A stretch of DNA of 47,024 bases from an uncultured Spirochaetales bacterium (GTDB taxonomy: Bacteria > Spirochaetota > Spirochaetia > Sphaerochaetales > Sphaerochaetaceae). The notes under the pieces are model-generated. The model was not told the DNA's origin and did no database searches. It was given only the letters and a program-made list of their open reading frames with translations. Both the position numbers and the translations under genes were made by a program. Shown piece by piece: positions 5,221-39,466 of this stretch. The stretch's first letter is position 1; every line of letters begins with the position of its first letter. The stretch lies in assembly GCA_949285145.1 (NCBI GenBank), contig CASDXQ010000005.1, positions 1-47,024 on the forward strand, in the 5' to 3' direction.

Positions 5221-5270
5221 GCCCTGGATTATGTCAGAACACACAAGTTTCTTCAACCTGAGAGAACATT

Positions 5271-25198: not shown

Positions 25199-27145
25199 TC
25201 AGAACAGATATACGACACCGATAAGAGGACGTACACCTATTGTGAACACTTCATTGTAGTTGATGTTGAGAGTGATACCCAGATTCAGTTCAAGATGATT
25301 GTTGAACATTCTCGTATAGCCTGCACCTACATCACCGAATACAGACAGTCCGTTGCCGAAACCGGCACCTGCGCCGCCGTAAATCGTGAGGAAATTATCA
25401 AGAGTACCGTCAAGAGGCAGCATATAATAGCCGTTCACAGCTGCGGAATAAGACATATCCGCAAATGCGGCATCAGTTCCGCTCTCACTGTCATAATGCA
25501 TAAGTCCATTGACAAAACTTACAGAAACCCTGCCGCCGACGCCATAGTAGCGCTTTGCCTTTCCTTCCGAATCATTCTCGAATCTTGCACCGGCTTCAAC
25601 AGAAACACCTGCCGTGAAACCGAAATCAAACGCACTGGAGTTGTCTGAGGATGCCGTCTCCTCTTCACTCAAAGCTCCGCCAATGCTTTCAAACGCCTTG
25701 TCATTGAGGATAATGCCGAATGAACCATTGACATCGGCCTGTACATAGAATCTGGTATTTGTGGCACCCTTCACTTCCTCATTGGTCTTTTTCCTGATTG
25801 AGCTGTCTTCAACATCTCCAAGATCAACCGGAGTACCATATTCAAAAGTGATAGTCACAGGATTCTGGATATCTTCCATGTTCCTTACAGTCTGTGTGCT
25901 TCCGTCAGAATCAGTATATCTGTCAATCCTGAGCGAATTGATAGTGAAGACATACTCGTTTCCGATGTACTGACCGCGCACTGTATAGCCGATTGTGAGA
26001 CGGATGATATCATCAGGATTGTTCATCAGCTCATCGTTCCAGCGCTCGAATGTGATATCATTATATGAACTGCCTACAAGATCTTCATAAGGAACGAGGA
26101 ATGAGAACTGGAGTGTCTGGTTACCAAGCATGATATTGCCGCGTGCGATCCATCCTCCCATCTGGGCATTGTAGCTGAGCACATCGATTGAAAGGTCATC
26201 CGTATTGCTTACGGCAGTGAATTCCGATCTTGAAATGGTATCAAGGTCATCGATTGCTGTTGTTGCCAGCTCGACAAGGCGGTCATTCATATTGATCGGG
26301 CTGTTTCTGTAATAAGAGAATGCGCTTCTGTTGGCCTCAATACGCAGCATATAGTCAGATGCGGACTGAGGATCAGTCGATGAATACTCCATCGTGGCAA
26401 ATGTTACGGAATCCCTTCCCTCTCCGGCAAGCATGCCGAGATCGTTCGCCAGTCCCAGATAGCGTTCCTGATATGTTTCAAGAAGCTTCATGTCTTGCGC
26501 ATCAAGATCTCCGTTTGCGAGACGCAGTGTCATTGAAGCGATTTCCGTTTCAAGACTGTTTTTCTCTCTGTTGAGCATGTCTTCGTATTCAAGACGCACC
26601 CTGTTCATTGAAACAGGAAGCACCGGCACATCAGAAGACGGAGAGAGAATGGATACAATCAGGCTGTAGTTGGAATAGTCATAGCAGAGATCGAGAAGAG
26701 TCTCCTGCCATGAAATGTTCTTCTCAGCTGAAGTATCATTTATAATCTGATTATTGATATCGACAATCTCATCATAAAGCGAACCGATCTGCTCCTGATA
26801 AAGAGAGATCGATGATGACGGAATTACTGCCTTGGTATGCCAGTTCATACCGAATTCAGCAGTCGGATCCTCACTGTCGCTGTATTCAATATTAAGCAGA
26901 GGAAGCTCTCTTGAATATTCTGTTATGAGAACAGAGAAAGAATCAGAGCTTCTCTCGTCGGATTCATATGTTTCAATTGTTGTTGTGGATTCCTGCTCAA
27001 CAATGATCTGAGCCTTGATATCCTGAACAGCGTTTGCCCTTGACTCGTCTCTCGTGGAACCGTATCCGGAACCAGTCAGGTCAGCTGCATACATATTTGA
27101 AAAGGTAAACAGAACAGCAAAAAGTAAGACAAGTGCCTTTTTCAT
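25199..27145 (-). CDS. LPP20-like domain / helical / C-terminal barrel-like envelope protein (paralogue 1)
   Basis: A 648-residue exported protein. Signal peptide MKKALVLLFAVLFTFSNMYA. Then an LPP20-like domain (LTGSGYGSTRDESRANAVQDIKAQI, residues about 21-45), long helices at about 130-290, a beta domain (about 315-450) and a glycine- and aromatic-alternating C-terminal region (about 470-648) ending GVRPLIGVVYLF. A terminal Phe after alternating hydrophobics is the outer-membrane insertion signature. ATG at 27145 has GGAGG 8 nt upstream. It shares architecture with 34193-36469 and 37223-39466. The LPP20 domain is known from Helicobacter lipoprotein LPP20 and Vibrio FlgP; the whole-protein function is unknown. 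A terminator-like hairpin lies just upstream. Confidence 0.72.
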   Translation of the reverse strand: MKKALVLLFAVLFTFSNMYAADLTGSGYGSTRDESRANAVQDIKAQIIVEQESTTTIETYESDERSSDSFSVLITEYSRELPLLNIEYSDSEDPTAEFGMNWHTKAVIPSSSISLYQEQIGSLYDEIVDINNQIINDTSAEKNISWQETLLDLCYDYSNYSLIVSILSPSSDVPVLPVSMNRVRLEYEDMLNREKNSLETEIASMTLRLANGDLDAQDMKLLETYQERYLGLANDLGMLAGEGRDSVTFATMEYSSTDPQSASDYMLRIEANRSAFSYYRNSPINMNDRLVELATTAIDDLDTISRSEFTAVSNTDDLSIDVLSYNAQMGGWIARGNIMLGNQTLQFSFLVPYEDLVGSSYNDITFERWNDELMNNPDDIIRLTIGYTVRGQYIGNEYVFTINSLRIDRYTDSDGSTQTVRNMEDIQNPVTITFEYGTPVDLGDVEDSSIRKKTNEEVKGATNTRFYVQADVNGSFGIILNDKAFESIGGALSEEETASSDNSSAFDFGFTAGVSVEAGARFENDSEGKAKRYYGVGGRVSVSFVNGLMHYDSESGTDAAFADMSYSAAVNGYYMLPLDGTLDNFLTIYGGAGAGFGNGLSVFGDVGAGYTRMFNNHLELNLGITLNINYNEVFTIGVRPLIGVVYLF

Positions 27146-27165
27146 AAAAATTTCCTCCGTGAGAA

Positions 27166-27203
27166 TGAAAAAAGAAATGCTTCCTCCACGCGGAAGGAAG
27201 CAT
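27166..27203 (-). terminator. Terminator or attenuator between two envelope genes
   Basis: Minus-strand stem ATGCTTCCT/AGGAAGCAT (27177-27203) followed by TTTCTTTTTT. It ends only about 20 nt before the ATG of the large protein at 27145, leaving no space for a separate promoter. Confidence 0.7.
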
Positions 27204-27215
27204 CCCATATCAATA

Positions 27216-27941
27216 TCAGCCTACGAATGTGGCATCTGTTCCGGCTTCAGCCTGGACTCTGGCCTGTGCCGCATCAATGAAAGCACCTGCCGGATACTCT
27301 TCAACATAGAGAGCTGCGCACTGTGCACCGAAATCGCCGCCGGCACTGAAGAGCTGCGAAGCAAAAGCTGCAACGTCAGATGCATAAGGAGCAAGAGTGT
27401 AGCTCTTGACATCTGTAAGTCCGACAAGCTCATTGTAGAGATCTTCAGCCCATTTGATCACTGTAGCCGCATCTGTCTGCTTCTGAAGCAGTGACAGAGC
27501 TGTCTGAGCAAGGACTGTCAGAGATGAGCTGTCAACAATGCGGTAGTAGTTGATATCATAACCACGGTAATCATTGTACTCATCCGGCTCGATTTCCGTT
27601 GTTTCGTAAAGCTCGATCTTATAACCCAGAGCGCTCAGAGCACGGAGAGTGACATCAGGCACGCTTGTGGAACTTGTGTCTTCAGAGAAAATGCCGAACA
27701 TGCCCTGCCATACAAGTCCCCACTGGTCGTCAAGAGAAAGGCTTTCAAAAGTAGCAGCACCTCTGATGATTGCATCACATGCTGTGGAACTCGGAGCATA
27801 GACAAGACCGAAAACAGCACCGAATGAGTTCATCAGAACCTGGAATGCGGAACATGCAGTTGTTGTGAGAAGAACCATTGCGATCAGAAGTACAGCAACG
27901 ATCTTCACAGCCTTACTGCGAACAGATAAATTAGAAAACAT
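27216..27941 (-). CDS. Exported or lipoprotein of unknown function
   Basis: A 241-residue protein. The N-terminal hydrophobic segment after basic residues (RSKAVKIVAVLLIAMVLLTTTAC) has a relaxed lipobox TTAC, so lipidation at about Cys30 is possible. The mature part is largely helical with Ala-rich stretches and a repeated acidic/Tyr section (ETTEIEPDEYNDYRGYDINYY). No family recognised. ATG at 27941 follows a GGGGGGAAA ribosome site. It lies upstream of the first LPP20/barrel gene and separated from it by an attenuator-like hairpin, so the two may form an operon. Confidence 0.65.
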   Translation of the reverse strand: MFSNLSVRSKAVKIVAVLLIAMVLLTTTACSAFQVLMNSFGAVFGLVYAPSSTACDAIIRGAATFESLSLDDQWGLVWQGMFGIFSEDTSSTSVPDVTLRALSALGYKIELYETTEIEPDEYNDYRGYDINYYRIVDSSSLTVLAQTALSLLQKQTDAATVIKWAEDLYNELVGLTDVKSYTLAPYASDVAAFASQLFSAGGDFGAQCAALYVEEYPAGAFIDAAQARVQAEAGTDATFVG

Positions 27942-28217
27942 GATTGTTTCCCCCCACCTGAAAATTAAGCTGTATAACTATCAGCTATCTTTCAGTAAAG
28001 GCCAAAACAAAACGTCTGTCAATATTTTTATCTCTGAAAGTCGTAATTTTCCGGTATACGGCAGAATACAGAGTGAGAGGAAATCAATATCGGATGAAAT
28101 ACAGCAAAAAAGAACCGGCAGGACATCAGTGAAATACAAAACATTCATCTGACAAGCGCCAGCATAAGAGGCAGGGACAGGATTCCTTTGAAAACAGAAA
28201 GAATGTGGATAAAATGA
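27942..28217. other. Gene-free interval with probable promoter
   Basis: No convincing gene on either strand. Reading the minus strand, TTGACA is visible near 28020 and a TTTACT-N17-TATACA pair lies nearer the start of the gene at 27941; either could be its promoter. CTTTCAG/CTGAAAG also form a loose inverted repeat across this stretch. Nothing else seen. Confidence 0.4.
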
Positions 28218-28243
28218 AGCCACAGATTCCCAGATCTGCGGCT
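28218..28243 (-). terminator. Putative terminator after small outer-membrane protein gene
   Basis: AGCCACAGAT/ATCTGCGGCT, a 10-bp stem with one wobble and a 6-nt loop, followed on the minus strand by TTCATTTTAT. It is 40 nt past the stop at 28283. Confidence 0.6.
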
Positions 28244-28282
28244 ATATGGTAAAGCTCTGAAAAGCTGCCTCCGGAGAATCAG

Positions 28283-28870
28283 TCAGCGCATCAGGCCGAA
28301 CGTGACTGTCGGATACACATACCAGCCAGTATTGAAATCATTTACCGCAAAATAATCATTATTGCCCATATTCGCAAAATCAGCTCCGCCGCTGATGCCA
28401 AGGCAAATGACATAATGGCTGATGATTTCATACGAAATTATAACAGATCCACCCGCACCTATTGTCATCAGGGATGCAGTGTTTTCAAGATATCCGCTTC
28501 TGTCGAACATATCAAAACCTATTGACAGGCCCGCACCGATTTCCAGATCGAGCGCATCTCCGTCAATCACCTTGAAAGAAGGGCCGGCAAGAAGATTCAT
28601 GTATAAACCTGTTGTCTCCCATCCTCCGTTCACCGCAAGGCCGTTACCAATGTTGTATCCTGCACCGAATACAAAATAACCGCCTATGGGGAAATCTCCG
28701 TAAAAAGATCCTGCAACAGAACCTCCCGGCACCTGAAGACTCTGTGCTCCGGCTTCAAAATCCGCTTCACCGTAAAGATATCCAGCGCCTGCTGTCAGCA
28801 TGAGATCATATGCAAAAAGAGAAGAAAACGACAGACAGACAATTAAAGAGAATAGAATAAGTCGTTTCAT
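28283..28870 (-). CDS. Small outer-membrane beta-barrel-like protein
   Basis: A 195-residue exported protein. Signal peptide MKRLILFSLIVCLSFSSLFA. The rest alternates glycine/aromatic beta-strands (LTAGAGYLYGEADF, GGYFVFGAGYNIGNGL, EIGAGLSIGFDMF, TIGAGGSVIISYEI, VYPTVTFGLMR), as in an eight-stranded outer-membrane barrel. It ends in Arg, not the usual aromatic. The start is ATG at 28870 with AGAGG upstream, 16 nt after the preceding lipoprotein gene; an in-frame start at 28894 would overlap that gene. Function unknown; likely structural or surface. Confidence 0.7.
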   Translation of the reverse strand: MKRLILFSLIVCLSFSSLFAYDLMLTAGAGYLYGEADFEAGAQSLQVPGGSVAGSFYGDFPIGGYFVFGAGYNIGNGLAVNGGWETTGLYMNLLAGPSFKVIDGDALDLEIGAGLSIGFDMFDRSGYLENTASLMTIGAGGSVIISYEIISHYVICLGISGGADFANMGNNDYFAVNDFNTGWYVYPTVTFGLMR

Positions 28871-28886
28871 AAACACCTCTGCTCTA

Positions 28887-29639
28887 TCAGACAATTACTG
28901 TTCCGCCACCGCTGCCGGATGAAGAAGAAGCTGAAGAAGATCCCGGAATCTCAGTTCCGCGCGGGGTGAAAATCACCTCGTATGTTCTGGTTTCATTCGT
29001 ATCACTGTCCTTTATATCAAGCGTGTATTCCTTTGACCAGTCACCTCCGCCATAATATCTGACTGTACATTCCACATCAGTAATTACGTAATAATGCTTT
29101 CTGTCATAAGAAGTGCCGTTCTGATAAACACTTTCTTCTATGAAAAAACTATAAGCACCGGATATATTGCTTATATGACGATATGCTGTGACACTTGCCA
29201 TTCCCTCATAGTTTCCAGCCCATATATCCTTTATTATATCTTTAATTGCACTGCCGACTGTCGTTTTTATACTTGAAGAAGCTTCTGAAGTGCCTTTTTT
29301 TACTGACAAGTCATATGGATTTGCCGCAGACTGGGTGGCAATATATTTTGTGTTATCATACAAGAATGAGAAAGATGTCCCGGCATAATCACAATTGTAC
29401 GATGCATAATTCATTTTCAGAGTACCAGTAAGATCATTCATTAAATAGTTGTACTCGTAATTATCCAGTTTTACGGTGTACATGTCTTTAGTCTTGGAGC
29501 TCTCCCAGTTTAGGTCATTTTCAATCGTCTTGACTGCCGTGTAGATCACTTCTGAAGGCATTCCGGTACTGTTTGAGCATGATGCAATAAAAAGCAGACA
29601 TACAGCAAGAAAGAAACAAGAGCCAAATGTTTTTCTCAT
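28887..29639 (-). CDS. Lipoprotein of unknown function
   Basis: A 250-residue predicted lipoprotein (MRKTFGSCFFLAVCLLFIASC, lipobox IASC). The mature protein is rich in Ser, Thr and Tyr with beta character and ends in a low-complexity Ser/Gly tail (GSSSASSSSGSGGG). No family recognised. ATG at 29639 has AAAGGGGA upstream; an in-frame start at 29669 lacks a better site. Operon with the barrel-like protein downstream. Divergent from the LPP20 lipoprotein operon starting near 29774. Confidence 0.7.
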   Translation of the reverse strand: MRKTFGSCFFLAVCLLFIASCSNSTGMPSEVIYTAVKTIENDLNWESSKTKDMYTVKLDNYEYNYLMNDLTGTLKMNYASYNCDYAGTSFSFLYDNTKYIATQSAANPYDLSVKKGTSEASSSIKTTVGSAIKDIIKDIWAGNYEGMASVTAYRHISNISGAYSFFIEESVYQNGTSYDRKHYYVITDVECTVRYYGGGDWSKEYTLDIKDSDTNETRTYEVIFTPRGTEIPGSSSASSSSGSGGGTVIV

Positions 29640-29738
29640 TATTATCCCCTTTATCCCATGGATTTTCATGGCAAATTGTAAGTATCCCCCCCATTGTCAA
29701 TATTCGGTAATGCTTCCTGAATTTTAATCATCCTGATC

Positions 29739-29767
29739 TTGATTTTCATATACCTCACTGCTAGAAT
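29739..29767 (+). promoter_or_regulatory. Promoter of the plus-strand LPP20 lipoprotein operon
   Basis: TTGATT (29739-29744), 17-nt spacer, TAGAAT (29762-29767). The predicted start is near 29774. The same -35 and -10 hexamers with the same spacing, and similar spacer bases, lie in front of the large gene at 34193-36469. Confidence 0.6.
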
Positions 29768-29886
29768 GCTCTCATAGGTAGTGCTGAGGGGACTGCGGTT
29801 TCATGACTGTAAGTTATAATCCGGGTTTCTTATTCATTACAAAATTATCCGGGAGGTCGTTTCCTGTCACAGGAAACAAGTCAGGG

Positions 29887-30615
29887 GTGAAAAAGATTCT
29901 TCTTTTAATATTGGCAGCCGCACTTCTGCTTTCATCATGCTCCAGTACACAGCAAGGACAGAATGCATCTCCGTCCGATGACTTTGCTGTTCAGATAAAC
30001 AGAATATTCGATGAGTATGAAGCCCTTGAAGGACAGGTTTTCATAGGCATTTCCGGGCCATTCACCAACCAGATGAAAGCCGTTCAGGAAGCAACTGAGA
30101 ATGCCTATTACATGGCATTGCTTTATGAAGATCTGGTAATGAGAGTCGACATAAGCATCGATGTGAATACAGCAAGACAGAGAGACAGTTTCAGAACATA
30201 TTCAGATGCCGTCTATGATCCTGACCGTCTCGCAGAGGTCGCCTCAAGACTTGAGATCGCCGATGTGCAGTGGGTCGGCGGTGATGTCGGCGCAGTTGTT
30301 CTTGCACAGTATGCGGATCAGGACAACAGGGACAAGAGCGGAGATTATGTTTACGCCGACGGTACGATATTCACATATTATTATATACAGGATTCCATGT
30401 TCGCTGCAGCATATGAGGCCGCTGTGAATCTGGCAATCGGGCAGAGTGATCTTTCTGCAGTAGTTGATCACACAACAACGCACAATGAAAATATGACAAG
30501 ACAGGCCTGGCAGATAAATCTCTCAGATCTGAACGGCTTTGAGATTGTATCATATTCCTATAACCCTGAAACCAGGGAATATACGTGTACGGCACGTGCA
30601 TTGAAGAGAAATTGA
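29887..30615 (+). CDS. LPP20-like lipoprotein
   Basis: About 242 residues. Hydrophobic signal VKKILLLILAAALLLSSC with lipobox LSSC. GQVFIGISGPFTNQMKAVQEATENAYYMALL recalls the LPP20 pattern (a Gly-rich strand then an Ala-rich helix of 'eAraeA' type), though more diverged than the next two genes. GTG at 29887 gives a standard lipoprotein signal; an ATG at 29803 also has GAGGGG upstream but would place the signal sequence internally. First gene of a three-gene operon. Periplasmic or outer-membrane anchored; function unknown. Confidence 0.68.
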   Translation: MKKILLLILAAALLLSSCSSTQQGQNASPSDDFAVQINRIFDEYEALEGQVFIGISGPFTNQMKAVQEATENAYYMALLYEDLVMRVDISIDVNTARQRDSFRTYSDAVYDPDRLAEVASRLEIADVQWVGGDVGAVVLAQYADQDNRDKSGDYVYADGTIFTYYYIQDSMFAAAYEAAVNLAIGQSDLSAVVDHTTTHNENMTRQAWQINLSDLNGFEIVSYSYNPETREYTCTARALKRN

Positions 30616-30630
30616 CAGCAGTGATGCTGT
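30615..30630 (+). other. Small hairpin after the first LPP20-like gene
   Basis: ACAGCA (30615-30620), loop GTGA, TGCTGT (30625-30630), immediately after the stop codon and followed by TAAAATAAAA rather than a T-run. More likely an mRNA-end or stability element than a terminator. Confidence 0.4.
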
Positions 30631-30658
30631 TAAAATAAAACAAACAGGAGAAATTGAA

Positions 30659-31222
30659 ATGAAAAAAACAATTATTGCTCTCGCACTCGTTCTGATCACA
30701 GTTCTCGCCGGCTGTTCCTCAACAGCGGAAGTTGCTCCGGTCGAAGATGCAAACGGACTTCCTCAGTGGGTTTATCAGGATATGTCAACACAGGATGTTC
30801 ACTATGCAGTAGGCTATGCAAAGATGTCAAACCAGCAGACTTCAATGCAGAGAGCTCAGGCTGAGGCAAGAAACCTCATCGCACAGTGGGTAAACACAAG
30901 TGTTGAGCAGATCATCACAACCTACACAAATGATGCAGGTACAGATGCAAACCGCCAGGCTATGGATGCATTTGAATCTCTCTCAATCCAGAATGCAAGC
31001 GCAATCCTCTCCGGTACAAAGCAGGAGAATATGTACATTGACGAGGACGGCGGCGTATACATCCAGATGAGCATTCCTGTGGCAAACGTTGAATCACAGA
31101 TGTACGGTTTCGTGGAAGAAGCTGTTGCTCAGACTCCGTTCGAGAAGAACGAAGCTGCTGAAGAAGCAAACGCCATGATGAATGACGCTATCGCAAAGTA
31201 CTTCGGTACAGCCAGCAACTGA
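30659..31222 (+). CDS. LPP20 family lipoprotein
   Basis: A 187-residue lipoprotein. Signal MKKTIIALALVLITVLAGC with lipobox LAGC. It has a classic LPP20 domain: PQWVYQDMSTQDVHYAVGYAKMSNQQTSMQRAQAEARNLIAQWV, then a helix and beta-strand end (GGVYIQMSIPVANVESQMY). LPP20 proteins sit in the outer membrane; in Vibrio FlgP forms a flagellar ring, and in Helicobacter LPP20 is an antigen. No flagellar gene is nearby, so the role here is unknown. ACAGGAG lies 8 nt upstream of the ATG. Second gene of the lipoprotein operon, followed by a terminator-like structure before the third. Confidence 0.88.
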   Translation: MKKTIIALALVLITVLAGCSSTAEVAPVEDANGLPQWVYQDMSTQDVHYAVGYAKMSNQQTSMQRAQAEARNLIAQWVNTSVEQIITTYTNDAGTDANRQAMDAFESLSIQNASAILSGTKQENMYIDEDGGVYIQMSIPVANVESQMYGFVEEAVAQTPFEKNEAAEEANAMMNDAIAKYFGTASN

Positions 31223-31223
31223 A

Positions 31224-31280
31224 CCTCAGCATAGCTTGAGACAGAATCAAGGCTGAGGGGATTTCCTTCAGCCTTTTGTT
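31224..31280 (+). terminator. Terminator with alternative upstream pairing (attenuator-like)
   Basis: Stem AAGGCTGA (31249-31256) / TCAGCCTT (31268-31275) followed by TTGTTT forms a terminator. CCTCAGC (31224-31230), 2 nt after the preceding stop codon, can instead pair with GCTGAGG (31252-31258) and would block it. Confidence 0.6.
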
Positions 31281-31295
31281 TCAAAAGGAGAAAAA

Positions 31296-31967
31296 ATGTT
31301 CAAAAAACTTATTTTCATCCTGCTTTCACTCCTCATCATCACTTCATGTGCCACCGAAACAGATATTGATGCCGTAAATGATGACGGCTCTCCGATATGG
31401 ACCACCATTGTTCCGGAAAGCAATAAGTATGTATACGGAGTCGGACGGGCTAAGCTTTCAAATGAAGCGAACTCAACAGCATCAGCCGACGCTGACGCAC
31501 GTGCTGATCTTGCAAGCAAGCTCCAGTCAACAATCAAGGAAGCCACTTCCAACTATACAAATGACAGCGAAGGGGATCTGCGCAACGCATATGAGCAGAT
31601 CACTATCCAGTTTGTCGAATTCACGATGAGAGGTGTCAAGACAGAACAGCACTGGACTGCACCTGACGGCACGGTCTGGTCTCTTGTCTCGCTTGAAGCC
31701 AAAACTCTCGATGATCAGTATGCACTTGCCGCAAATGACTATCTGACGCAGATTGAGGCAAAGAAAGTCGAAACAGAAAGCAAGCTCGCTGATCTTCTTG
31801 AAGCTCTCGCTGCTCAGGAAGGAGACACGTCCGCAGCTGCTGAAGAAGCAAACAGACAGGCACAGATCATCATCAACTCCTGTGACAACCAGCTCAACGG
31901 TATAGATGTTGACGGTCTTGCTGCAGTCATTGATGCCTACACAACAGCTCAGGGTTATATCGAATAA
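31296..31967 (+). CDS. LPP20 family lipoprotein with helical C-terminal extension
   Basis: A 223-residue lipoprotein. Signal MFKKLIFILLSLLIITSC, lipobox ITSC. The LPP20 domain is seen as PIWTTIVPESNKYVYGVGRAKLSNEANSTASADADARADLASKL, parallel to the previous gene, with WSLVSLEAKTLDDQY as the closing strand. A C-terminal Ala/Glu-rich helical region (about 150-223) is absent from its neighbour. AAAAGGAG lies 7 nt upstream of the ATG. Third gene of the operon, possibly expressed at a different level because of the intergenic terminator. Function unknown. Confidence 0.86.
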   Translation: MFKKLIFILLSLLIITSCATETDIDAVNDDGSPIWTTIVPESNKYVYGVGRAKLSNEANSTASADADARADLASKLQSTIKEATSNYTNDSEGDLRNAYEQITIQFVEFTMRGVKTEQHWTAPDGTVWSLVSLEAKTLDDQYALAANDYLTQIEAKKVETESKLADLLEALAAQEGDTSAAAEEANRQAQIIINSCDNQLNGIDVDGLAAVIDAYTTAQGYIE

Positions 31968-31986
31968 GCCTTTTCATCTGCTTTTT

Positions 31987-32024
31987 AAAGCCTGCCCGCA
32001 TAACCGGTGCAGGCTTTATTTTTT
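31987..32024 (+). terminator. Terminator of the LPP20 lipoprotein operon
   Basis: Perfect 9-bp stem AAAGCCTGC (31987-31995) / GCAGGCTTT (32009-32017) followed by ATTTTTT. Confidence 0.9.
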
Positions 32025-32229
32025 GAGTTCCGGAACCTGCTCTACACCTTATGCCCTCTCAAGACAGACAGGAATCAAATTGACAGAATACTGAAAACAA
32101 TTTCTGCAAAACTCCTCACTCTGTTTTGCCGGTTCTTTGGCATTGTATGCTTAAAATACTGATGTCAGCAATTTTGAATTCACCTTACGTCCCAGAGAAA
32201 ATTCACAAAAGGCGCAAATTGAGGAAATG

Positions 32230-32260
32230 AAAAAAACAGGGTCGCATCACTGCAACCCTG
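32230..32260 (-). terminator. Terminator of the minus-strand envelope operon
   Basis: CAGGGT (32237-32242) / ACCCTG (32255-32260) with an inner GCA/TGC pairing, followed on the minus strand by seven T. It lies 32 nt past the stop at 32292. The DNA between 32025 and 32229 shows no gene. Confidence 0.85.
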
Positions 32261-32291
32261 CACTGCATAAGAAGATTCCAGATTATTATCC

Positions 32292-33644
32292 TTAAATAAC
32301 CTGAATAGTGGAATTGAGACGGCACATATTATAACCGTCACTGTCGAATCCGAAGACCATGACAGTATATGTACCTGTTTTCTCAGGAACAAAGGTGAAA
32401 CTGTTATATTCAAACGGTGTGTCTGAACCCCATCCGCCGGAAATCATGCCTTCAAGCGCCGTGTTGTTTGTTGAAATGGATCTGTTTCCGGAATAGACGC
32501 GCTCACCGTTGCTGTCAAAAACGTAAACCCTTACACGGGAGAATCTGTCTTCGGGCGAGAATGCAGAGATTGAAGCATCAATGCTGACTCTGGTGTCGAC
32601 CAGCGCGGCTGCACCTTCCATTGCATTTGTGGATGCCATGACACCGGTTATCTCGCACATTGAGTTGCCGAATGTCTCAACCGGATATGAAACGATGCCC
32701 TGATAGATGTTGCCGTCAGTGTCATCACAGATTCTGACATTTATCACGACATCTTCCTCATCAGCATATGCAGCACTGTCTGCAAACCCTCTTCCCGGAA
32801 CAAGATAGAACTGGAATGACTGGGATGACGAACTGGAGCTGTATTCCCTGAAGTTCTCGCTCAGATCATCTTCATCAAATGTAACTGAAAGCACATCCTC
32901 ATACGGGGCAGCTACATCAAGATAGATTCTGTAATCATGTCTTGCGGCATTCAGGGATGAATATCTCAGCGTTCCGCAGCTTACAGCATCTGCAATCACG
33001 CCACGTGTATCAAGACCATAGGCATTGATGTCAAGTGTCTCATCAGCTGTCAGTCCGTATAGTCTTGTTGTCGGTGTATCTGCCATCTCTGTCGCGACTG
33101 TCGGTGTGATATTCATCGTGATGTCACCGGTGGCACTTGCAGCAAGATAGCTTGATCCGGAATTATAGCTGATTCTCGACTCAAGAATGGACCATACATC
33201 AACGACAGTCGAAACAGGAGTGTCAACATTCTTTGCCGTGAAAACAATCTCATCAGCACAGATATCATATCCGCCTGATGATCTTTCAGCATATGAAGCA
33301 TCTACAATCTCATACAGACGTCCGTCTATCAGGTCTGCATCCAGATGATATATTTCAACCGGAGAGAAATCATCAGTAGTCTCATTATCCAGTGTCAGAT
33401 ACTTCGGGTCATATGCGACAAGCCAGTACATATCATCAAACAGATCAAGATCTGCAACAAAAACAGATGTTTTCTCCAGACCGGCCACGCTGTTTGATGA
33501 AATCTGATAAGTCAGTTCACTGACTGAGCTTCCGCCTCCGCTTTCACCTGAGGAAGATGAAGATCCGAATCCAAGAAGCGCACATGATGAAAGCAGCAGT
33601 ACAGACAGAGACAGAATAGCCAGAACATTAACAATTTTTTTCAT
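32292..33644 (-). CDS. Large lipoprotein with C-terminal Ig-like domain
   Basis: A 450-residue lipoprotein. Signal MKKIVNVLAILSLSVLLLSSC, lipobox LSSC, followed by a Ser/Gly-rich linker (GSSSSSGESGGGSS). The mature protein is beta-rich and Asp/Ser/Tyr-rich. The last about 100 residues (IDASISAFSPEDRFSRVRVYVF...FTFVPEKTGTYTVMVFGFDSDG) look like a PKD/Ig-like beta-sandwich. No family assigned. ATG at 33644 has AGGAGG 5 nt upstream and lies 28 nt after the NPCBM-like gene. Last gene of the three-gene operon begun by the large LPP20/barrel protein. Likely surface or periplasmic. Confidence 0.78.
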   Translation of the reverse strand: MKKIVNVLAILSLSVLLLSSCALLGFGSSSSSGESGGGSSVSELTYQISSNSVAGLEKTSVFVADLDLFDDMYWLVAYDPKYLTLDNETTDDFSPVEIYHLDADLIDGRLYEIVDASYAERSSGGYDICADEIVFTAKNVDTPVSTVVDVWSILESRISYNSGSSYLAASATGDITMNITPTVATEMADTPTTRLYGLTADETLDINAYGLDTRGVIADAVSCGTLRYSSLNAARHDYRIYLDVAAPYEDVLSVTFDEDDLSENFREYSSSSSSQSFQFYLVPGRGFADSAAYADEEDVVINVRICDDTDGNIYQGIVSYPVETFGNSMCEITGVMASTNAMEGAAALVDTRVSIDASISAFSPEDRFSRVRVYVFDSNGERVYSGNRSISTNNTALEGMISGGWGSDTPFEYNSFTFVPEKTGTYTVMVFGFDSDGYNMCRLNSTIQVI

Positions 33645-33672
33645 AATTACCTCCTGCTATTTTCATATCCTG

Positions 33673-34113
33673 TTATTTGAAATCGACATTTGTCAAAATC
33701 ATTCCGTTCTTTTTAATTGCAGAATATGGTTCAAGTACAATTTTCAGCTGCCTCTGATAATTGAGATCGATTTCAAACTCTTCAGGGAAATCGCCGCCTT
33801 TGAAAACATGAGTCTCAACAAGCACGTTATCCACATAAATCTCAAGAGTATTTTCCTTGTCAAGTGTTGCATCATCTGAAACACCGACCGTCATTGTCAC
33901 AGTCTTATACCTGTTTTTAAGGTTATAAAGCAAAGTAGCAGGTCTGCTGTTGGTCGCATATCCATCAGAATATTCATCTCCCACCATTGTCAGAACATTG
34001 GCCGGAGAAAGCTCATATGCACCTGTAACCTTATACGGATTCAGGCTCTCGGCAGACAACGCACAGAGTGTGGCAAGTGCAACCAGCGCAACCATAATCA
34101 ATTTCTTTTTCAT
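33673..34113 (-). CDS. Small secreted NPCBM-like protein (copy A)
   Basis: A 146-residue secreted protein. Signal peptide MKKKLIMVALVALATLCALS. It has a single beta-sandwich module reminiscent of NPCBM/CBM51 carbohydrate-binding domains: LLYNLKNRYKTVTMTVGVSDD, LEIYVDNVLVETHV, FPEEFEIDLNYQRQLKIVL and a closing NVDFK. It is a clear paralogue of 36789-37226 (shared YNLKN.Y, SDD, YVDN, FPEE.EI.LNY.RQLK, DFK). ATG at 34113 has GGAGGG upstream; an earlier in-frame start at 34140 is less likely. It follows the large LPP20/barrel gene. A glycan-binding role is inferred from the resemblance only. Confidence 0.75.
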   Translation of the reverse strand: MKKKLIMVALVALATLCALSAESLNPYKVTGAYELSPANVLTMVGDEYSDGYATNSRPATLLYNLKNRYKTVTMTVGVSDDATLDKENTLEIYVDNVLVETHVFKGGDFPEEFEIDLNYQRQLKIVLEPYSAIKKNGMILTNVDFK

Positions 34114-34125
34114 AAACCCTCCAAA

Positions 34126-34183
34126 GCGGATAATCCGCAATTTTCTTATTCATTTTATCTCATCTGACAGATGCAGATGAGAT
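34126..34183 (-). other. Two intergenic mRNA hairpins in the envelope operon
   Basis: A 10-bp perfect stem ATCTCATCTG (34157-34166) / CAGATGAGAT (34174-34183) lies 10 nt past the large gene's stop, without a U-tract. A second palindrome GCGGATAATCCGC (34126-34138) lies next to the ribosome site of the NPCBM-like gene. They may set mRNA stability or translation of the small gene relative to its neighbour. Confidence 0.45.
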
Positions 34184-34192
34184 ACAGCCTTT

Positions 34193-36469
34193 TCAGAAAG
34201 ACATTGAGAAACCGGCGGAAGCTCCGAAATAAAGCTCATTGTCCAGCCAGGCTGCATTTCCGGAAACTTTGATTCCAAATCCGCTTGAAGTGCCGTATAT
34301 GACACCGGCACTGCCAGCAGCACCAAAATAGAGCAGATTCGAGTCAAACTTGAAATCACCCTCCATATTGTACCGCATGCCGCCACCGGCAGAAACAGCA
34401 GCATATATATAAAGCGAATGAGAAACCGGATACATCAGGTTAAGAGATGGTCCGATATAGATATGGGAAGGAGATGCAAGGGCATTGCTTCCAATCGGTA
34501 TATCCACAAGAAAAGTTCCCTGGACACCGACTGAGAAGAAATTCACTTTCGGAATTATGCTGACCCACGCTCCAGTCCAGAATGAATCAAAGTCAGATGT
34601 TGTAAGCGCAGATACTTCAGCATCTATGATAAATCTCCTGTAAAGGTATCCGTCCTCAAGCTTCTTTGAGAACGAAGACTTTTCCTTTTTCTTTTCATCA
34701 GTGCGATTATCCTGAACAGCTTCAGCAGCAGATGCAGCATCATCCTGCCCTGATTTCCCAGAAAGCGCATTCTGAGCTGAAGATGCAGTATCCGCATTCT
34801 GTCCTGAGCCGGAATTTCTCGCATACTTGAACTGTGACATATCCAGAAGCTCATCATAAGTCACTGAAAAATCAGTCAGACTTGTACGAGAAGGATATGA
34901 AAGCGTATCGGTCTGGTCAATCGATGTTGAGAAGACTTCTTCCCCTGTATCGTTTCTGGTGATTGAGAAGCGGTGGAAGTTGACTTCATATGTAGATGAA
35001 TAGTCATTTGAAATCGTGAACTCAAACTCAACCGTATAGATTTCAGGGAACTCACGCATGATCTCAAACCAGTCATATGCATTATCCCTGTACATGGAAT
35101 ATGCGGAAATATCTCCCTGGGAAGGAACGCTTTCGCCAGTCCAGTTCTCATATGGAATCCTGAAATAGAGGGTAATGACTTCATTACCGATGGTGATCTC
35201 TGCGACACCGCTGAAAAGCTTTGCCGCTTCTGCATAGGAGTCAATATAGGTATTGACTTCCGGAGCGAAGGAATTAAGCGTGAACCGGCCTTTTCTGAGC
35301 TGGTCAACATAAGAGAGAGAATAATCCGTGAGAGCACTCATTCTGGCAAACGCTTCCTGATAGACTGCATTCGCCTGAGGTGCATACTGCCCTCTCAGAT
35401 TTTCTATCTCAGCTTCAAGAACCTGTTCTCTGTATCTTCTTGCGGAAACAGTCGGCTGACCGTTGATCATTTCGTTTGCCTCGTACGGCATGATCTCATA
35501 CTTGCGGCGCAGCTCACTTACTGCATCATCATATGCATTCTCTATATTCCTGAGCTGGCTGTTGACACTGTCCTTTATGGCCTGAAGCGTGGCCCTGTTG
35601 GCTTCAATATTGTTGATCAGCTGAGAATAGGACATATCTCCTGTTACGGCACTGACATTTGCCGCATCAAACTCTGCCTGGAGCTGGGAGATGGTGGCTG
35701 CCATAGACTGCTGGAATTCTTCTCTTCTCATTGAGTAATCCTGTTCAGCCAGCGCCTGCAGTTCTTCCTGCTGTTTTCTGTTCTCTTCCAGCTGAGCGAG
35801 AGCTTCTTTCAGTTCCTGTTCTCCCTGAATGGAAAGGATACCCATCTGAGCCTGCTGCTGCAGGTTTGTAACAGTAATACTTGTATTGCTGTTCTCAACA
35901 AGAAGCCTGCTCTGATATTCAGCCTCAATCACGGTTCTTGTTACGGGAAGCATCCTGGCGGCAGCACTGCTGGAAGGATTCAGCTGCAGAACGACGATCT
36001 GGTATATCTCATAGTCTCTCAAAGCTGAAATCAGGCGGAGATAAGTGTTTTTCTGACTGGCGAAATCACCATCAGAATCCAGGGAGGCATATAGCGAAGA
36101 GATTGTGCTGTAAAGATTGTTCAGCTGAGCCTCATAAAGAGGTGCCTGGGCTTCAGTAAGCGATGATGTTGCAAAATATCCGCCGTTCTGTCTTTCTGTC
36201 TCTTCCTGCACGCCCAGAAGATTGAATGATGAGGACTGGAGACTGTAAGAACCCAGAGATGAGCTGCTGGCACCATATCCGTCATCTTCCGCAGATGCAT
36301 AAGTAACTGACGAAATATTTATGGAGAATCTTGAGATGAGATCCGCCCTTGAGTTCTGAAGAGCTGCTTCTTCTGTCTCACCCCAGCCTGTACCAGTGAC
36401 AGTTCCGGCACAAAGAGGTATCAAAGATGCAGCAAACAGCAGAAAAACGGCAAGTACTGCTTTTTTCAT
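34193..36469 (-). CDS. LPP20-like / coiled-coil / C-terminal barrel-like envelope protein (paralogue 2)
   Basis: A 758-residue exported protein. Signal peptide MKKAVLAVFLLFAASLIPLCA. LPP20-like domain (TGTGWGETEEAALQNSRADLISRFSINISS). A long coiled-coil region at about 195-380 (LKEALAQLEENRKQQEELQ and later Glu/Gln-rich helices). A beta domain at about 395-545 (EITIGNEVITLYFRIPYENWTG, FEFTISNDYSSTYEVNFHRF). An Ala/Ser/Asp/Lys linker. Then a barrel-like C-terminus of about 170 residues ending YFGASAGFSMSF, a terminal Phe like an outer-membrane assembly signal. ATG at 36469 has AAGGGG upstream. It heads the operon with NPCBM-like copy A and a lipoprotein. Function unknown; the layout suggests a periplasm-spanning protein anchored in the outer membrane. 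Confidence 0.75.
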   Translation of the reverse strand: MKKAVLAVFLLFAASLIPLCAGTVTGTGWGETEEAALQNSRADLISRFSINISSVTYASAEDDGYGASSSSLGSYSLQSSSFNLLGVQEETERQNGGYFATSSLTEAQAPLYEAQLNNLYSTISSLYASLDSDGDFASQKNTYLRLISALRDYEIYQIVVLQLNPSSSAAARMLPVTRTVIEAEYQSRLLVENSNTSITVTNLQQQAQMGILSIQGEQELKEALAQLEENRKQQEELQALAEQDYSMRREEFQQSMAATISQLQAEFDAANVSAVTGDMSYSQLINNIEANRATLQAIKDSVNSQLRNIENAYDDAVSELRRKYEIMPYEANEMINGQPTVSARRYREQVLEAEIENLRGQYAPQANAVYQEAFARMSALTDYSLSYVDQLRKGRFTLNSFAPEVNTYIDSYAEAAKLFSGVAEITIGNEVITLYFRIPYENWTGESVPSQGDISAYSMYRDNAYDWFEIMREFPEIYTVEFEFTISNDYSSTYEVNFHRFSITRNDTGEEVFSTSIDQTDTLSYPSRTSLTDFSVTYDELLDMSQFKYARNSGSGQNADTASSAQNALSGKSGQDDAASAAEAVQDNRTDEKKKEKSSFSKKLEDGYLYRRFIIDAEVSALTTSDFDSFWTGAWVSIIPKVNFFSVGVQGTFLVDIPIGSNALASPSHIYIGPSLNLMYPVSHSLYIYAAVSAGGGMRYNMEGDFKFDSNLLYFGAAGSAGVIYGTSSGFGIKVSGNAAWLDNELYFGASAGFSMSF

Positions 36470-36552
36470 TTTCGCACACACCCCTTACAGTAAAATCAGA
36501 AGGGATGATTTAAAAGAAACAAATCATTACCCTCTGTTTTTTTATTGACAGT

Positions 36553-36581
36553 ATTCTAACAGCAAGAGTATTGAAAATCAA
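36553..36581 (-). promoter_or_regulatory. Promoter of the LPP20/barrel paralogue 2 operon
   Basis: On the minus strand TTGATT (36581-36576), 17-nt spacer, TAGAAT (36558-36553). Hexamers and spacing are identical to those at 29739-29767, and the spacers are alike (both begin TTCA and contain TGCTG or CTGC before the -10). The leader is about 77 nt. Confidence 0.6.
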
Positions 36582-36724
36582 TCAATTCAAAATTCCGCTG
36601 AGAACAAACCATTCATTGCGTTTCTCAATACTGCATCAAGGATTCGTCCCAAGTTCTTTCCAGATATGTGCAGAATGAGACATATTCACCAATTTTGCAT
36701 ATATTTGCTTACTTATCAAAACAC

Positions 36725-36762
36725 AAAAAAGCTGCATCAAAAGCATTCACTTTCAAAGCAGC
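36725..36762 (-). terminator. Terminator after NPCBM-like copy B
   Basis: GCTGC (36731-36735) / GCAGC (36758-36762) with a partly paired inner loop (AAAG/CTTT), followed on the minus strand by six T. It is 27 nt past the stop at 36789. The interval 36582-36724 shows no gene. Confidence 0.65.
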
Positions 36763-36788
36763 CTTATGATTTTAAATCAATGAATCAC

Positions 36789-37226
36789 TCACTTGAAATC
36801 CATATCTGAAATTACGGCATGATCTCCGCCAACATAAAGCTTCAGCTGCCTGCCATAATTCAATGGAATTTCAATCTCCTCAGGAAAGCCTCCGCCGGCA
36901 ATACTGTATGAAGCTATTTTCTCGTTATCCACATAAAACTCAAATGTCAGCTTCTGTCCGATTCCCACATCATCAGACGGCGCAATTGTGCAGGAGAGAA
37001 CCCGGTAGTTGTTTTTCAGGTTATACAATTGTGTAAAACTGTTTCCTCCCCACCCTGTCCCTGCTTTGAATCCGTTATTACATGGCTCACCCATAATGTA
37101 AACAGGATTAGAGCTGTCGATTTTACCACAGTTTCCCTCTGTTCTGTACGGTGTAAGCTGCACGGCTCCCAGCACTTCCAAGAAAACAAACAGCCATAAT
37201 GCTGACACAAAAAACTTTTTTCTCAT
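36789..37226 (-). CDS. Small secreted NPCBM-like protein (copy B)
   Basis: A 145-residue secreted protein. Signal peptide MRKKFFVSALWLFVFLEVLG. The mature module is paralogous to 33673-34113: LYNLKNNYRVLSCTIAPSDD, FEFYVDNEKIASYSI, FPEEIEIPLNYGRQLKLYV, DMDFK. It carries three cysteines absent from copy A. It overlaps the large upstream gene by 4 bp (ATGA), so the two are translationally coupled. The glycan-binding function is inferred from NPCBM-like strands and is not certain. Confidence 0.75.
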   Translation of the reverse strand: MRKKFFVSALWLFVFLEVLGAVQLTPYRTEGNCGKIDSSNPVYIMGEPCNNGFKAGTGWGGNSFTQLYNLKNNYRVLSCTIAPSDDVGIGQKLTFEFYVDNEKIASYSIAGGGFPEEIEIPLNYGRQLKLYVGGDHAVISDMDFK

Positions 37227-39466
37227 CTATTTCCTCCTAAATTGTAAACAACGCCAGCTGCCAGCATCAGGCCGGAATAACATCCAGATTTTGCAAACTG
37301 AAGAGAAAATCTCATGTCTGTTTTTTCTCCAACAGGGTAATGCACGCTGACACCGAACGAACCATTGATATCAAAGAGAACCCTTCCGTCATAGGAGAAG
37401 AAAATGCCAGGACCGGCAGCGGCATTGAGGTACCAGTAGCACTGTCCATGTGTCATCAGCCATGATGCGGCAACTCCTATATATAAAGATGCTTCATTTC
37501 CAAAGAACACACCTTCAAGCAAACCGCCAGCCTTGAGCCGGGAATTGAGACTTGCAAGCAGAGAAAGCCTTACACCGAACCCTATTTCATCCCCGACGAT
37601 ACCCACTGCAATCTCCGCATCTCCTATAATCGACAGATCAGCAGTTTTCCTCTCTTGTTTTTCGATATGTTCCAGCACACCTGAGTTATCCATTCCAACA
37701 TTCTCACCTGGTGATGTTTTTATATCCGCAGGATTTTCATTGACTTCATTCTCATAAACACGTGTTTCGTAAATGAATTTTGCTTCTGTAACACCCATAT
37801 CGTCTGAATCTTCCGGTTCATTTCCAACCGCTCCGGAATTATTTTCCTCAGCTGACACAGTTCTGTTTTTATAAGGATCAAAAACGAAAAGAGAAGTATC
37901 CAGAAGGTCATCATATGTTACGGAAAAATCTGTAAGCTCTGTGCGTGATTCGTATCTGAGATCATCTGTCTGATCAATTTTCCATGAGAATACCTGTTCT
38001 CCGGTATCATTTCTTATGATTCTGAACTGCGAGAATCTGACTTCATAAGACGGACTGTAATCTGTTGAAACCGAAAAGTCGACTTCCAGAGTATAGATTG
38101 ATGGATAATCCTGAAGTATCTCCAGCCAGTAGCCGGCATCTGATTCATATGCAAGATACGCTTCATGATCACTCTCAGAAGGTATCTCAAATCCCGTCCA
38201 GCTCTCATATGGAATACGGAAATACAGTCTTATTGATTCATTGCCGATTGTTATATCTGCTATGCCGCTGTAAAGCCGTGCATTGTCGAAATACCCCTCA
38301 ATATATGCAGAGAGGCAAGAATCATTTGAAGAAGCGGTAAATGTACGGCTGCTCAGTTCATCAGCTAAGCCCAATGAATGTGTTGCAATATCAGACATCA
38401 TGTTGAAAGCTTCCAGATAAAACGAATTTGCCTGTTGCTGGAAATCTCTTCTTGTGCGTTCTGTTTCCTGTTGTACCTCCCTTGGAGAATTATATTCACT
38501 GCTGACAATTGAATTGATTTCATTCTGAAAAGATTCTTCTAGTGACCTGAGCCATTCATTGGCATTATCCCTTATAGCCTGAATTGTAGCTCTGTCAGCC
38601 TCAATTGAATTAATCAGATTCTCAAAACTGTTATCAGGCTCATCGCCTGATGTCATATCAGAAGATTCGGGAAAAATTTTTTCATTATCTGCTGTGTGTA
38701 CGTCATCTATTCCAAATTTCTCAAGCATCAGTGCCATATCATCTGCCGCAAGCCTTCTCATCTGTTCCTGCTGTTTCCTGATCTCTTCAAGACGATCCGA
38801 AGCTTCTGTAAGTATCTCATCATTGCCATGCAGGATTCCCATCTGTGCTTGTTTCGTAAGTGATGAGACAATAATTTCTGTTTCATTTTCTTCAAGCGTC
38901 AGACGCGACTGATACTCATTCTCTATAACAGCTCTTGTTACAGGAAGAACTCTTTTGCCTATATCACTGTCTGGAGAAAGCCTTAATACTACAATCTGAT
39001 ATATTTCGTATTCCCTGAGAGCTGATATCAACCTGGGATAAACATTTTTCTGAACATCAAAATCTCCAGAAGGATCGACATATGGTAAAAGCTCATTAAT
39101 TGTTGTGAAAAGATTATTCAGCTGTGCTTCATAAAGAGGAACCTGGGCTTCACTCAATGATGATGTAGCAGAAAATGATCCATCTTCATTCTGTACAGTA
39201 GTCTCGTTTGCACCCAGAAGTTTGAACGATGTTGTCTGAAGACTCATTGAAGAGAGATTTGCAGTGCTGTTTTCTCCATCATCTGAGACAGAAGACAGAA
39301 TAAGAGAAGAAATATTGACAGAGAACCGGGATGCAAGATCCGCCCTTGCATTGGACAATGCAACCTCAGGATCAGATCCGGATCCGGATCCTGTCACAAC
39401 GTCAGATGCATAAATGACAGAAATTGAGAATATGACAAGACTGAAAATAATTAAGGCTTTTCTCAA
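37223..39466 (-). CDS. LPP20-like / coiled-coil / C-terminal barrel-like envelope protein (paralogue 3)
   Basis: A 747-residue exported protein with the same plan as 34193-36469. Signal LRKALIIFSLVIFSISVIYA. LPP20-like domain (TGSGSGSDPEVALSNARADLASRFSVNISS). Coiled coil (ASDRLEEIRKQQEQMRRLA). Beta domain with the near-identical motif ADITIGNESIRLYFRIPYESWTG. Acidic linker, then a glycine-rich barrel-like end (AAGVVYNLGGNR) that lacks the terminal aromatic. TTG at 39466 is chosen because AGGAG lies 8 nt upstream; ATG at 39487 has no ribosome site. The spectrum of shared motifs (AQVPLYEAQLNNLFTTI, REYEIYQIVVLRL, QTDDLRYESRTELTDFSVTYDDLLD) shows tandem duplication with paralogue 2. Coupled to NPCBM-like copy B. 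Confidence 0.74.
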   Translation of the reverse strand: MRKALIIFSLVIFSISVIYASDVVTGSGSGSDPEVALSNARADLASRFSVNISSLILSSVSDDGENSTANLSSMSLQTTSFKLLGANETTVQNEDGSFSATSSLSEAQVPLYEAQLNNLFTTINELLPYVDPSGDFDVQKNVYPRLISALREYEIYQIVVLRLSPDSDIGKRVLPVTRAVIENEYQSRLTLEENETEIIVSSLTKQAQMGILHGNDEILTEASDRLEEIRKQQEQMRRLAADDMALMLEKFGIDDVHTADNEKIFPESSDMTSGDEPDNSFENLINSIEADRATIQAIRDNANEWLRSLEESFQNEINSIVSSEYNSPREVQQETERTRRDFQQQANSFYLEAFNMMSDIATHSLGLADELSSRTFTASSNDSCLSAYIEGYFDNARLYSGIADITIGNESIRLYFRIPYESWTGFEIPSESDHEAYLAYESDAGYWLEILQDYPSIYTLEVDFSVSTDYSPSYEVRFSQFRIIRNDTGEQVFSWKIDQTDDLRYESRTELTDFSVTYDDLLDTSLFVFDPYKNRTVSAEENNSGAVGNEPEDSDDMGVTEAKFIYETRVYENEVNENPADIKTSPGENVGMDNSGVLEHIEKQERKTADLSIIGDAEIAVGIVGDEIGFGVRLSLLASLNSRLKAGGLLEGVFFGNEASLYIGVAASWLMTHGQCYWYLNAAAGPGIFFSYDGRVLFDINGSFGVSVHYPVGEKTDMRFSLQFAKSGCYSGLMLAAGVVYNLGGNR

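What the first reader, a model, noticed from the sequence alone, without database searches (positions are those of the whole stretch)
25199..39466. A 14-kb envelope island built around repeated LPP20-type proteins
Eleven or twelve consecutive exported proteins include three large paralogues (signal peptide, LPP20-like domain, long helices or coiled coil, beta domain, barrel-like C-terminus), three LPP20-like lipoproteins, two NPCBM-like secreted proteins, a small barrel and further lipoproteins. I know no described system with a protein combining an N-terminal LPP20-like domain, a periplasm-length coiled coil and an outer-membrane barrel. LPP20 relatives (FlgP) form rings, so a multi-protein outer-membrane/periplasmic assembly is a reasonable hypothesis.
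Basis: partly seen in the sequence, partly recalled or inferred. Interest (0 to 1): 0.75.

Follow-up and report, generated by a model that had tools for sequence, protein, structure and literature searches.

The report
Mobile island of LPP20 stalk-barrel proteins
A gut spirochaete without flagella carries an acquired 14.6-kb gene island for an undescribed cell-envelope assembly: large proteins predicted to be anchored in the outer membrane by a small barrel and to end in a domain of the Helicobacter Lpp20 / flagellar-ring family, made next to small lipoproteins of that family.

Summary
Observation largely confirmed. All 12 island products have N-terminal export signals. The three large proteins (J 34193-36469, L 37223-39463, A 25199-27148) are paralogues. 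J is modelled as an LPP20-like domain, long helices, a beta domain, a linker and an 8-stranded outer-membrane-type barrel. J's N-domain matches Helicobacter HP1454 and lipoproteins F and G match Lpp20 (HP1456); both come from one H. pylori operon. I and K are true NPCBM proteins. E is only doubtfully LPP20-like.

The genes stay together: 14 of 18 genomes with a J protein have F/G or E within 6 kb, and four other species carry J-I-H-E/F/G as one block. No genome of the order has FliG, so this is not a flagellar ring. Seven congeners show an empty site: glutamine synthetase and the efflux adaptor lie about 0.2-0.3 kb apart there, 14.9 kb apart here. Protein L and partner K are closer to another genus than to a congener, so the island was probably acquired.

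New: the architecture, its modularity (the same beta domain behind caspase or LpoB N-domains elsewhere) and its mobility. Proposed, untested: a periplasmic tether or scaffold on the outer membrane.

The parts
25199..27148 (-). A: third large paralogue (649 aa): LPP20-like N-domain, short helical part, beta domain; C-terminus reads as 8 amphipathic strands ending in F
   Evidence: Nlpp HMM 2e-15, Beta HMM 3e-12; Pfam LPP20 0.07, below cut-off; strand alternation z 3.4; orthologue next to B in L064
27216..27941 (-). B: exported protein with atypical lipobox, partner of A
   Evidence: B-A pair also in L064 (44% and 53% identity)
28283..28894 (-). C: small exported barrel-like protein
   Evidence: NCBIfam TDE1717 family 1e-4, below cut-off; strand alternation z 2.1
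28887..29669 (-). D: lipoprotein, no relatives found
   Evidence: lipobox IASC; only itself in the HMM survey
29884..30615 (+). E: lipoprotein, conserved marker of the module; beta-alpha-beta-beta pattern twice in a low-confidence model
   Evidence: A3 profile: 12 of 393 genomes of the phylum, 11 of them in this family; model pLDDT 44
30659..31222 (+). F: LPP20-type lipoprotein
   Evidence: F/G profile hits H. pylori Lpp20 (5ok8) E 8e-6; lipobox LAGC
31296..31967 (+). G: LPP20 lipoprotein
   Evidence: PF02169 2e-8, 34.9 bits against cut-off 25.9; lipobox ITSC
32292..33644 (-). H: lipoprotein, third gene of the J-I-H unit; terminator-like stem follows at 32261
   Evidence: orthologues in the same order in L015, L061, L063, L065
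33673..34140 (-). I: secreted NPCBM/NEW2 protein paired with J
   Evidence: PF08305 1e-10; next to J in L015, L061, L063, L065
34193..36469 (-). J: signal peptide, LPP20-like domain (about 24-107), helices (106-393), beta domain (395-524), linker, 8-stranded barrel (623-757)
   Evidence: AF2, VIA-align, 4kzs HMM, domain HMMs
36789..37226 (-). K: secreted NPCBM protein, overlaps L by 4 bases
   Evidence: PF08305 3e-5, 24.5 bits against cut-off 23.9; L-K pair in L014 and L062
37223..39463 (-). L: large paralogue of J with the same domain plan
   Evidence: 47% identity to J; sister of a G121 gene, 64% identity
25008..39892 (.). inserted segment between glutamine synthetase III and the RND adaptor gene
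   Evidence: these flank genes lie about 0.2-0.3 kb apart in seven congeners

Best explanation
The island encodes an accessory outer-membrane/periplasmic scaffold. SHOWN by sequence: exported proteins; LPP20 domains in F, G and the N-terminus of J, L and A; a conserved gene set; insertion at a site that is empty in relatives; no flagellum gene FliG. MODELLED: J is fixed in the outer membrane by a C-terminal 8-stranded barrel; its linker, beta domain and helices form a stalk in the periplasm with the LPP20 domain at the N-terminal end. INFERRED: that LPP20 domain binds, or packs in one layer with, the LPP20 lipoproteins F and G (and perhaps E), as LPP20-fold proteins do in FlgP and FlgT rings, so that J ties the outer membrane to a lipoprotein layer or the inner side of the envelope; each J-type protein works with its own small NPCBM protein (I or K), which may bind envelope or host glycan. 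The barrel is mainly an anchor with variable loops, and the conserved work is done in the periplasm. The module would stabilise or space the outer membrane in a spirochaete that lacks periplasmic flagella, and spreads between genera as cassettes (L-K, J-I-H-E-F-G, B-A).
For: N-domain to HP1454 and F/G to Lpp20; HP1454 and Lpp20 are encoded in one H. pylori operon and both bind FapH and FlgP (PMC11756786). J N-domain against the F/G family by hhalign: 80 columns in register, E 2e-6. Barrel Z 9-11. Between orthologues the helical part next to LPP20 is 56-86% identical and the beta domain 57-83%, except in the more distant L015 (35% and 49%); the barrel is 20-50% and the linker 23-42%. J lies within 6 kb of F/G or E in 14 of 18 genomes. 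FliG_C in 0 of 139 genomes of the order, with controls positive. Barrel-only proteins homologous to J's C-terminus sit next to J relatives in L016 and L058.
Against: No interaction, location or phenotype is known. Distal placement of the LPP20 domain would separate it from outer-membrane lipoproteins unless the coil folds back or F and G sit in the inner membrane. In H. pylori HP1454 and HP1456 did not interact in two-hybrid tests, and deletion of hp1456 gave no motor phenotype (PMC11756786). The model is of moderate quality (pLDDT 67, pTM 0.53).
Confidence: 0.45

Rival explanations
1. Glycan capture or adhesion: J/L with their NPCBM partners bind gut glycans at the cell surface; the LPP20 part only assembles or stabilises the complex.
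For: NPCBM proteins pair strictly with J and L in several genomes; the barrel is the fastest evolving folded part; patchy, mobile, multicopy distribution is typical of surface functions.
Against: An 8-stranded barrel exposes only loops; conservation lies in the parts modelled as periplasmic. Several J loci (L018, L058, L067, L069, L071, L074, L075, L077) have no NPCBM gene nearby.
Confidence: 0.2
2. Envelope sensing or regulated proteolysis: the coil plus beta domain is a transducer that carries exchangeable N-terminal heads (LPP20, LpoB/CsgG-like, caspase); the island is a head variant without the protease.
For: The beta-domain HMM hits caspase fusions (L075, L076, E 1e-9; L021 by the whole-protein HMM) and LpoB-headed proteins in another family (L081, E 2e-11), with no hit among shuffled sequences; in L075 the caspase fusion lies in one cluster with J, E, F and an LPP20-DUF4384 protein.
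Against: No caspase gene was found in the island. Domain sharing does not show shared function.
Confidence: 0.2
3. A hotspot collection: unrelated envelope genes gathered at one insertion site, without a joint assembly.
For: The three cassettes (L-K, J-I-H-E-F-G, B-A) occur at separate loci in relatives; the sister species G001 and G012 hold a different lipoprotein gene at this junction; C and D have no relatives.
Against: Within the main cassette J, I, H, E, F and G stay together in four other species (L015, L061, L063, L065).
Confidence: 0.15

Closest known systems
Helicobacter pylori lpp20 operon (HP1454, HP1456/Lpp20)
   Same: An exported protein with an N-terminal LPP20 domain encoded with an Lpp20 lipoprotein; significant profile matches for J to HP1454 and F/G to Lpp20.
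   Different: The HP1454 chain in the PDB has 285 residues; J has 758, with beta domain, linker and barrel. No E, H or NPCBM partner is known to me there. H. pylori is flagellated; this order has no FliG.
Campylobacter FlgP basal disk and Vibrio FlgT H-ring
   Same: LPP20/SHS2-like domain on outer-membrane-associated periplasmic proteins (PMC12222027).
   Different: No flagellum here; ring-forming beta-hairpin not established; FlgP/FlgT have no coil-beta-barrel extension (own knowledge).
NspA/OmpW/OmpA-type 8-stranded outer-membrane barrels
   Same: C-terminal 140 residues of J (Z 9-11).
   Different: Here the barrel is the C-terminal anchor of a long periplasmic protein; in OmpA the barrel is N-terminal (own knowledge).
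Secreted bacterial caspase-like (Peptidase_C14) proteins of spirochaetes
   Same: Share J's coil plus beta domain (L075, L076, L021).
   Different: Caspase instead of LPP20 at the N-terminus; repeats (RCC1, NPCBM-associated-like) instead of a barrel at the C-terminus.

Membership tests
LPP20 lipoprotein family (PF02169) | Pfam match over the curated cut-off | tested here: met
   Met by G only (34.9 bits against 25.9). F, J and L have no Pfam LPP20 hit and A is below the cut-off.
LPP20 lipoprotein family (PF02169) | Significant profile match to a solved LPP20 fold | tested here: met
   J family to HP1454 4kzs E 9e-6; F/G to 5ok8 E 8e-6
LPP20 lipoprotein family, protein E | LPP20 fold | tested here: inconclusive
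   hhalign of E's second half to F/G: probability 30%, E 6e-4; model pLDDT 44; no PDB hit
Flagellar FlgP/FlgT ring proteins | Part of a flagellated cell's motor | tested here: not met
   FliG_C in 0 of 139 genomes of the order including this one; controls positive
Flagellar FlgP/FlgT ring proteins | Ring-forming beta-hairpin between helix 1 and strand 2 | tested here: inconclusive
   J residues 50-81 lie there but have pLDDT under 50
8-stranded outer-membrane barrel | Eight-strand meander matching solved OM barrels, in an exported protein | tested here: met
   Z 9-11 to NspA, PagL, OmpW, OprF, OmpA; signal peptide. Model confidence only about 65, and soluble avidin-type barrels also score 7-9.
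HP1454-type protein | Whole-length architecture (285-residue chain) | tested here: not met
   J shares only the N-terminal part (model 21-193, Z 7.6; profile 24-107); J is 758 aa with a barrel
NPCBM/NEW2 (PF08305) | Pfam match over the cut-off | tested here: met
   I 41.9 bits, K 24.5 bits, cut-off 23.9. Sugar binding itself not tested.

The most novel reading that the evidence does not exclude
A flagellum-independent LPP20 assembly: outer-membrane barrel stalk proteins and LPP20 lipoproteins build a periplasmic ring, layer or tether in non-flagellated spirochaetes, and the stalk is a general spirochaete platform with exchangeable heads (LPP20, LpoB, caspase). It would suggest that flagellar LPP20 rings were recruited from a wider class of outer-membrane assemblies.
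Probability: 0.3. Interest if true: 0.8.

Novelty: new variant of a known kind. Interest (0 to 1): 0.62.

Why it matters
LPP20-fold proteins are known mainly as flagellar disk parts or as orphan Helicobacter antigens. Here the same fold is joined in one chain to a predicted outer-membrane anchor, is co-inherited with LPP20 lipoproteins, and occurs in an order in which FliG was not found in any of 139 genomes. That makes the question what LPP20 assemblies do apart from flagella testable, and gives a named gene set for studying how non-flagellated spirochaetes organise their envelope.

Tried and rejected
E as a firm LPP20 member: an apparent strong hit of the iterated G profile to E (4e-23) is not trusted; hhalign matched only the signal peptides, and the mature halves gave at best E 6e-4.

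Coiled-coil artefact: some J/A-profile hits could be coil similarity, so domain HMMs without the coil were used; no hits in shuffled sequences.

Flagellar ring: rejected by absence of FliG_C. Anti-phage defence: no PADLOC match. Plasmid or phage carriage: no match for J. Structured RNA and tRNA-linked integration: none in the window. Direct repeats: apart from paralogue similarity only short matches inside the insert; no pair bounding it as a mobile element would; no integrase-like gene noticed among the island ORFs.

Leads not completed: the FlgT structure paper is not held; PHROGs was not searched. The fold of the beta domain was barely tested and is not claimed to be new. The phylum survey scored at most two candidates per genome, so counts there are lower bounds.
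Full report
SETTING. The window is contig 5 of a 2.06-Mb draft genome. A genome of the same genus (G009) contains a contig of the same length and with the same gene as the named record Candidatus Aphodenecus pullistercoris; Candidatus Ornithospirochaeta avicola corresponds to a genome of another genus of the family in the same way (G045). Nothing in the order has the flagellar switch protein FliG: 0 of 139 genomes, with E. coli, B. subtilis, C. vibrioides and T. maritima positive as controls.

THE GENES. Between glutamine synthetase III and an RND efflux operon lie 12 genes for exported proteins. Units by spacing: L-K (overlap ATGA), J-I-H, E-F-G (opposite strand), D-C, B-A. Terminator-like stems follow H (32261) and lie between B and A (27206).

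THE LARGE PROTEINS. J, L and A are paralogues and the only J-type proteins of this genome. AlphaFold2 on J with seven relatives (pLDDT 67, pTM 0.53) gives strand 24-30, helix 33-48, a low-confidence insert 50-81, strands 88-94 and 97-104, helix 106-129; further helices to 393; a beta domain 395-524; a disordered linker; and eight strands 623-757. VIA-align puts the last part on NspA, PagL, OmpW, OprF and OmpA barrels (Z 9-11), and residues 21-193 on HP1454 (Z 7.6). Independently of the model, the J-family profile finds HP1454 in the PDB (E 9e-6, residues 24-107), the F/G profile finds Lpp20, HP1456 (E 8e-6), and the J N-domain profile matches the F/G profile (E 2e-6). HP1454 and HP1456 are encoded in one operon; HP1454's first domain resembles HP1456; both interact with FapH and FlgP (PMC11756786). 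This double match is the best external anchor for the island. Shuffled-sequence controls gave no domain-HMM hits.

WHERE CONSTRAINT LIES. Between orthologues the LPP20 domain (47-76%), the helices after it (35-86%) and the beta domain (49-83%) are conserved, while the linker (23-42%) and barrel (20-50%) drift. This fits an anchor with variable loops and a conserved periplasmic part.

NEIGHBOURHOODS. A J-family profile finds matches in 34 of 139 genomes of the order (11 of 22 genera), but full-length J proteins in only two genomes of its own genus of 16. In 14 of 18 genomes examined with a J protein, an F/G or E gene lies within 6 kb. With about three F/G-type matches in a 2-Mb genome this is far above chance (my estimate: a few percent per genome). 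In L015, L061, L063 and L065 the block J-I-H with E, F and G is intact, with a small barrel gene at the end in L015 and L065. In a Sphaerochaeta-type complete genome (L079) E and F sit with an LpoB-like lipoprotein and a longer LPP20 protein, without J (the LpoB reading of that small protein is by eye).

AN ACQUIRED ISLAND. In seven congeners (G011, G015, G009, G014, G008, G002, G005) glutamine synthetase and the RND adaptor gene lie about 0.2-0.3 kb apart in the same gene order, whereas here the gap is 14,886 bases. G009 carries its own J-type and E genes at other loci and has the site empty. The closest species, G001 and G012 (96% identical synthetase), have a different lipoprotein gene at this junction, so the site looks like a hotspot. 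In the tree L groups with a gene of another genus (G121; support 100/100) rather than with that of G009; identity L 64% against 48%, K 70% against 49%, while a housekeeping protein (window 3649-5256) shows the reverse, 73% against 81%. Transfer between genera is the simplest reading; old duplication with differential loss is not excluded. L-K, B-A and the J block occur at separate loci in relatives, so three cassettes were brought together here.

MODULARITY. The beta domain, searched without the coil, also occurs behind caspase domains (L075, L076) and an LpoB-type domain (L081) and in other long proteins of a second family (L083-L087, L093). A stalk with exchangeable heads and tails is therefore likely.

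MECHANISM. Shown: export signals, domain content, co-inheritance, insertion, absence of FliG. Modelled: barrel and LPP20 fold of J. Inferred: co-assembly of J with F/G and function as tether or scaffold, with I/K as glycan-binding partners. The geometry is open: three helices of 43-53 residues could form a stalk of 7-8 nm if folded back, or longer if stacked.

VERDICT. A real, conserved and mobile envelope module with an undescribed architecture; its parts belong to known families. New variant of a known kind.

Noticed in passing
L075 7887-14170 (G024): Secreted caspase-like protein fused to the J-type coil and beta domain, in one cluster with J, E, F and an LPP20-DUF4384 protein.
   Followed up: partly
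L022 1999-4670 (G010, same genus): Operon of an LPP20 lipoprotein, a longer LPP20 protein and an LpoB/CsgG-like domain fused to a barrel: a FlgP/FlgT/FlgO-like domain set without flagella.
   Followed up: partly
L079 9197-12897 and L080 9994-12239 (Sphaerochaeta-type complete genomes): LPP20 lipoproteins, a long LPP20 protein and an LpoB-like lipoprotein in a row; E is included in L079. No J.
   Followed up: partly
L016 2609-14661 (G056): Run of about a dozen small exported proteins of 190-245 aa beside a 1243-aa protein and a J relative; unknown.
   Followed up: no
L095 7314-8516, L096 8789-9571, L097 6764-7345 (G001, G012): Sister species hold a different, apparently duplicated lipoprotein gene at the junction that holds the island here; contigs of G012 break in it.
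   Followed up: partly
window 27174-27206: Strong terminator-like stem (14 pairs, T-run) between B and the likely start of A at 27148; possible attenuation of A.
   Followed up: no
L093 6672-13079 (G384): Two long proteins with CsgG/LpoB-like heads (by eye), coil, beta domain and barrel-like end flank a longer LPP20 protein in a different family of the class.
   Followed up: partly
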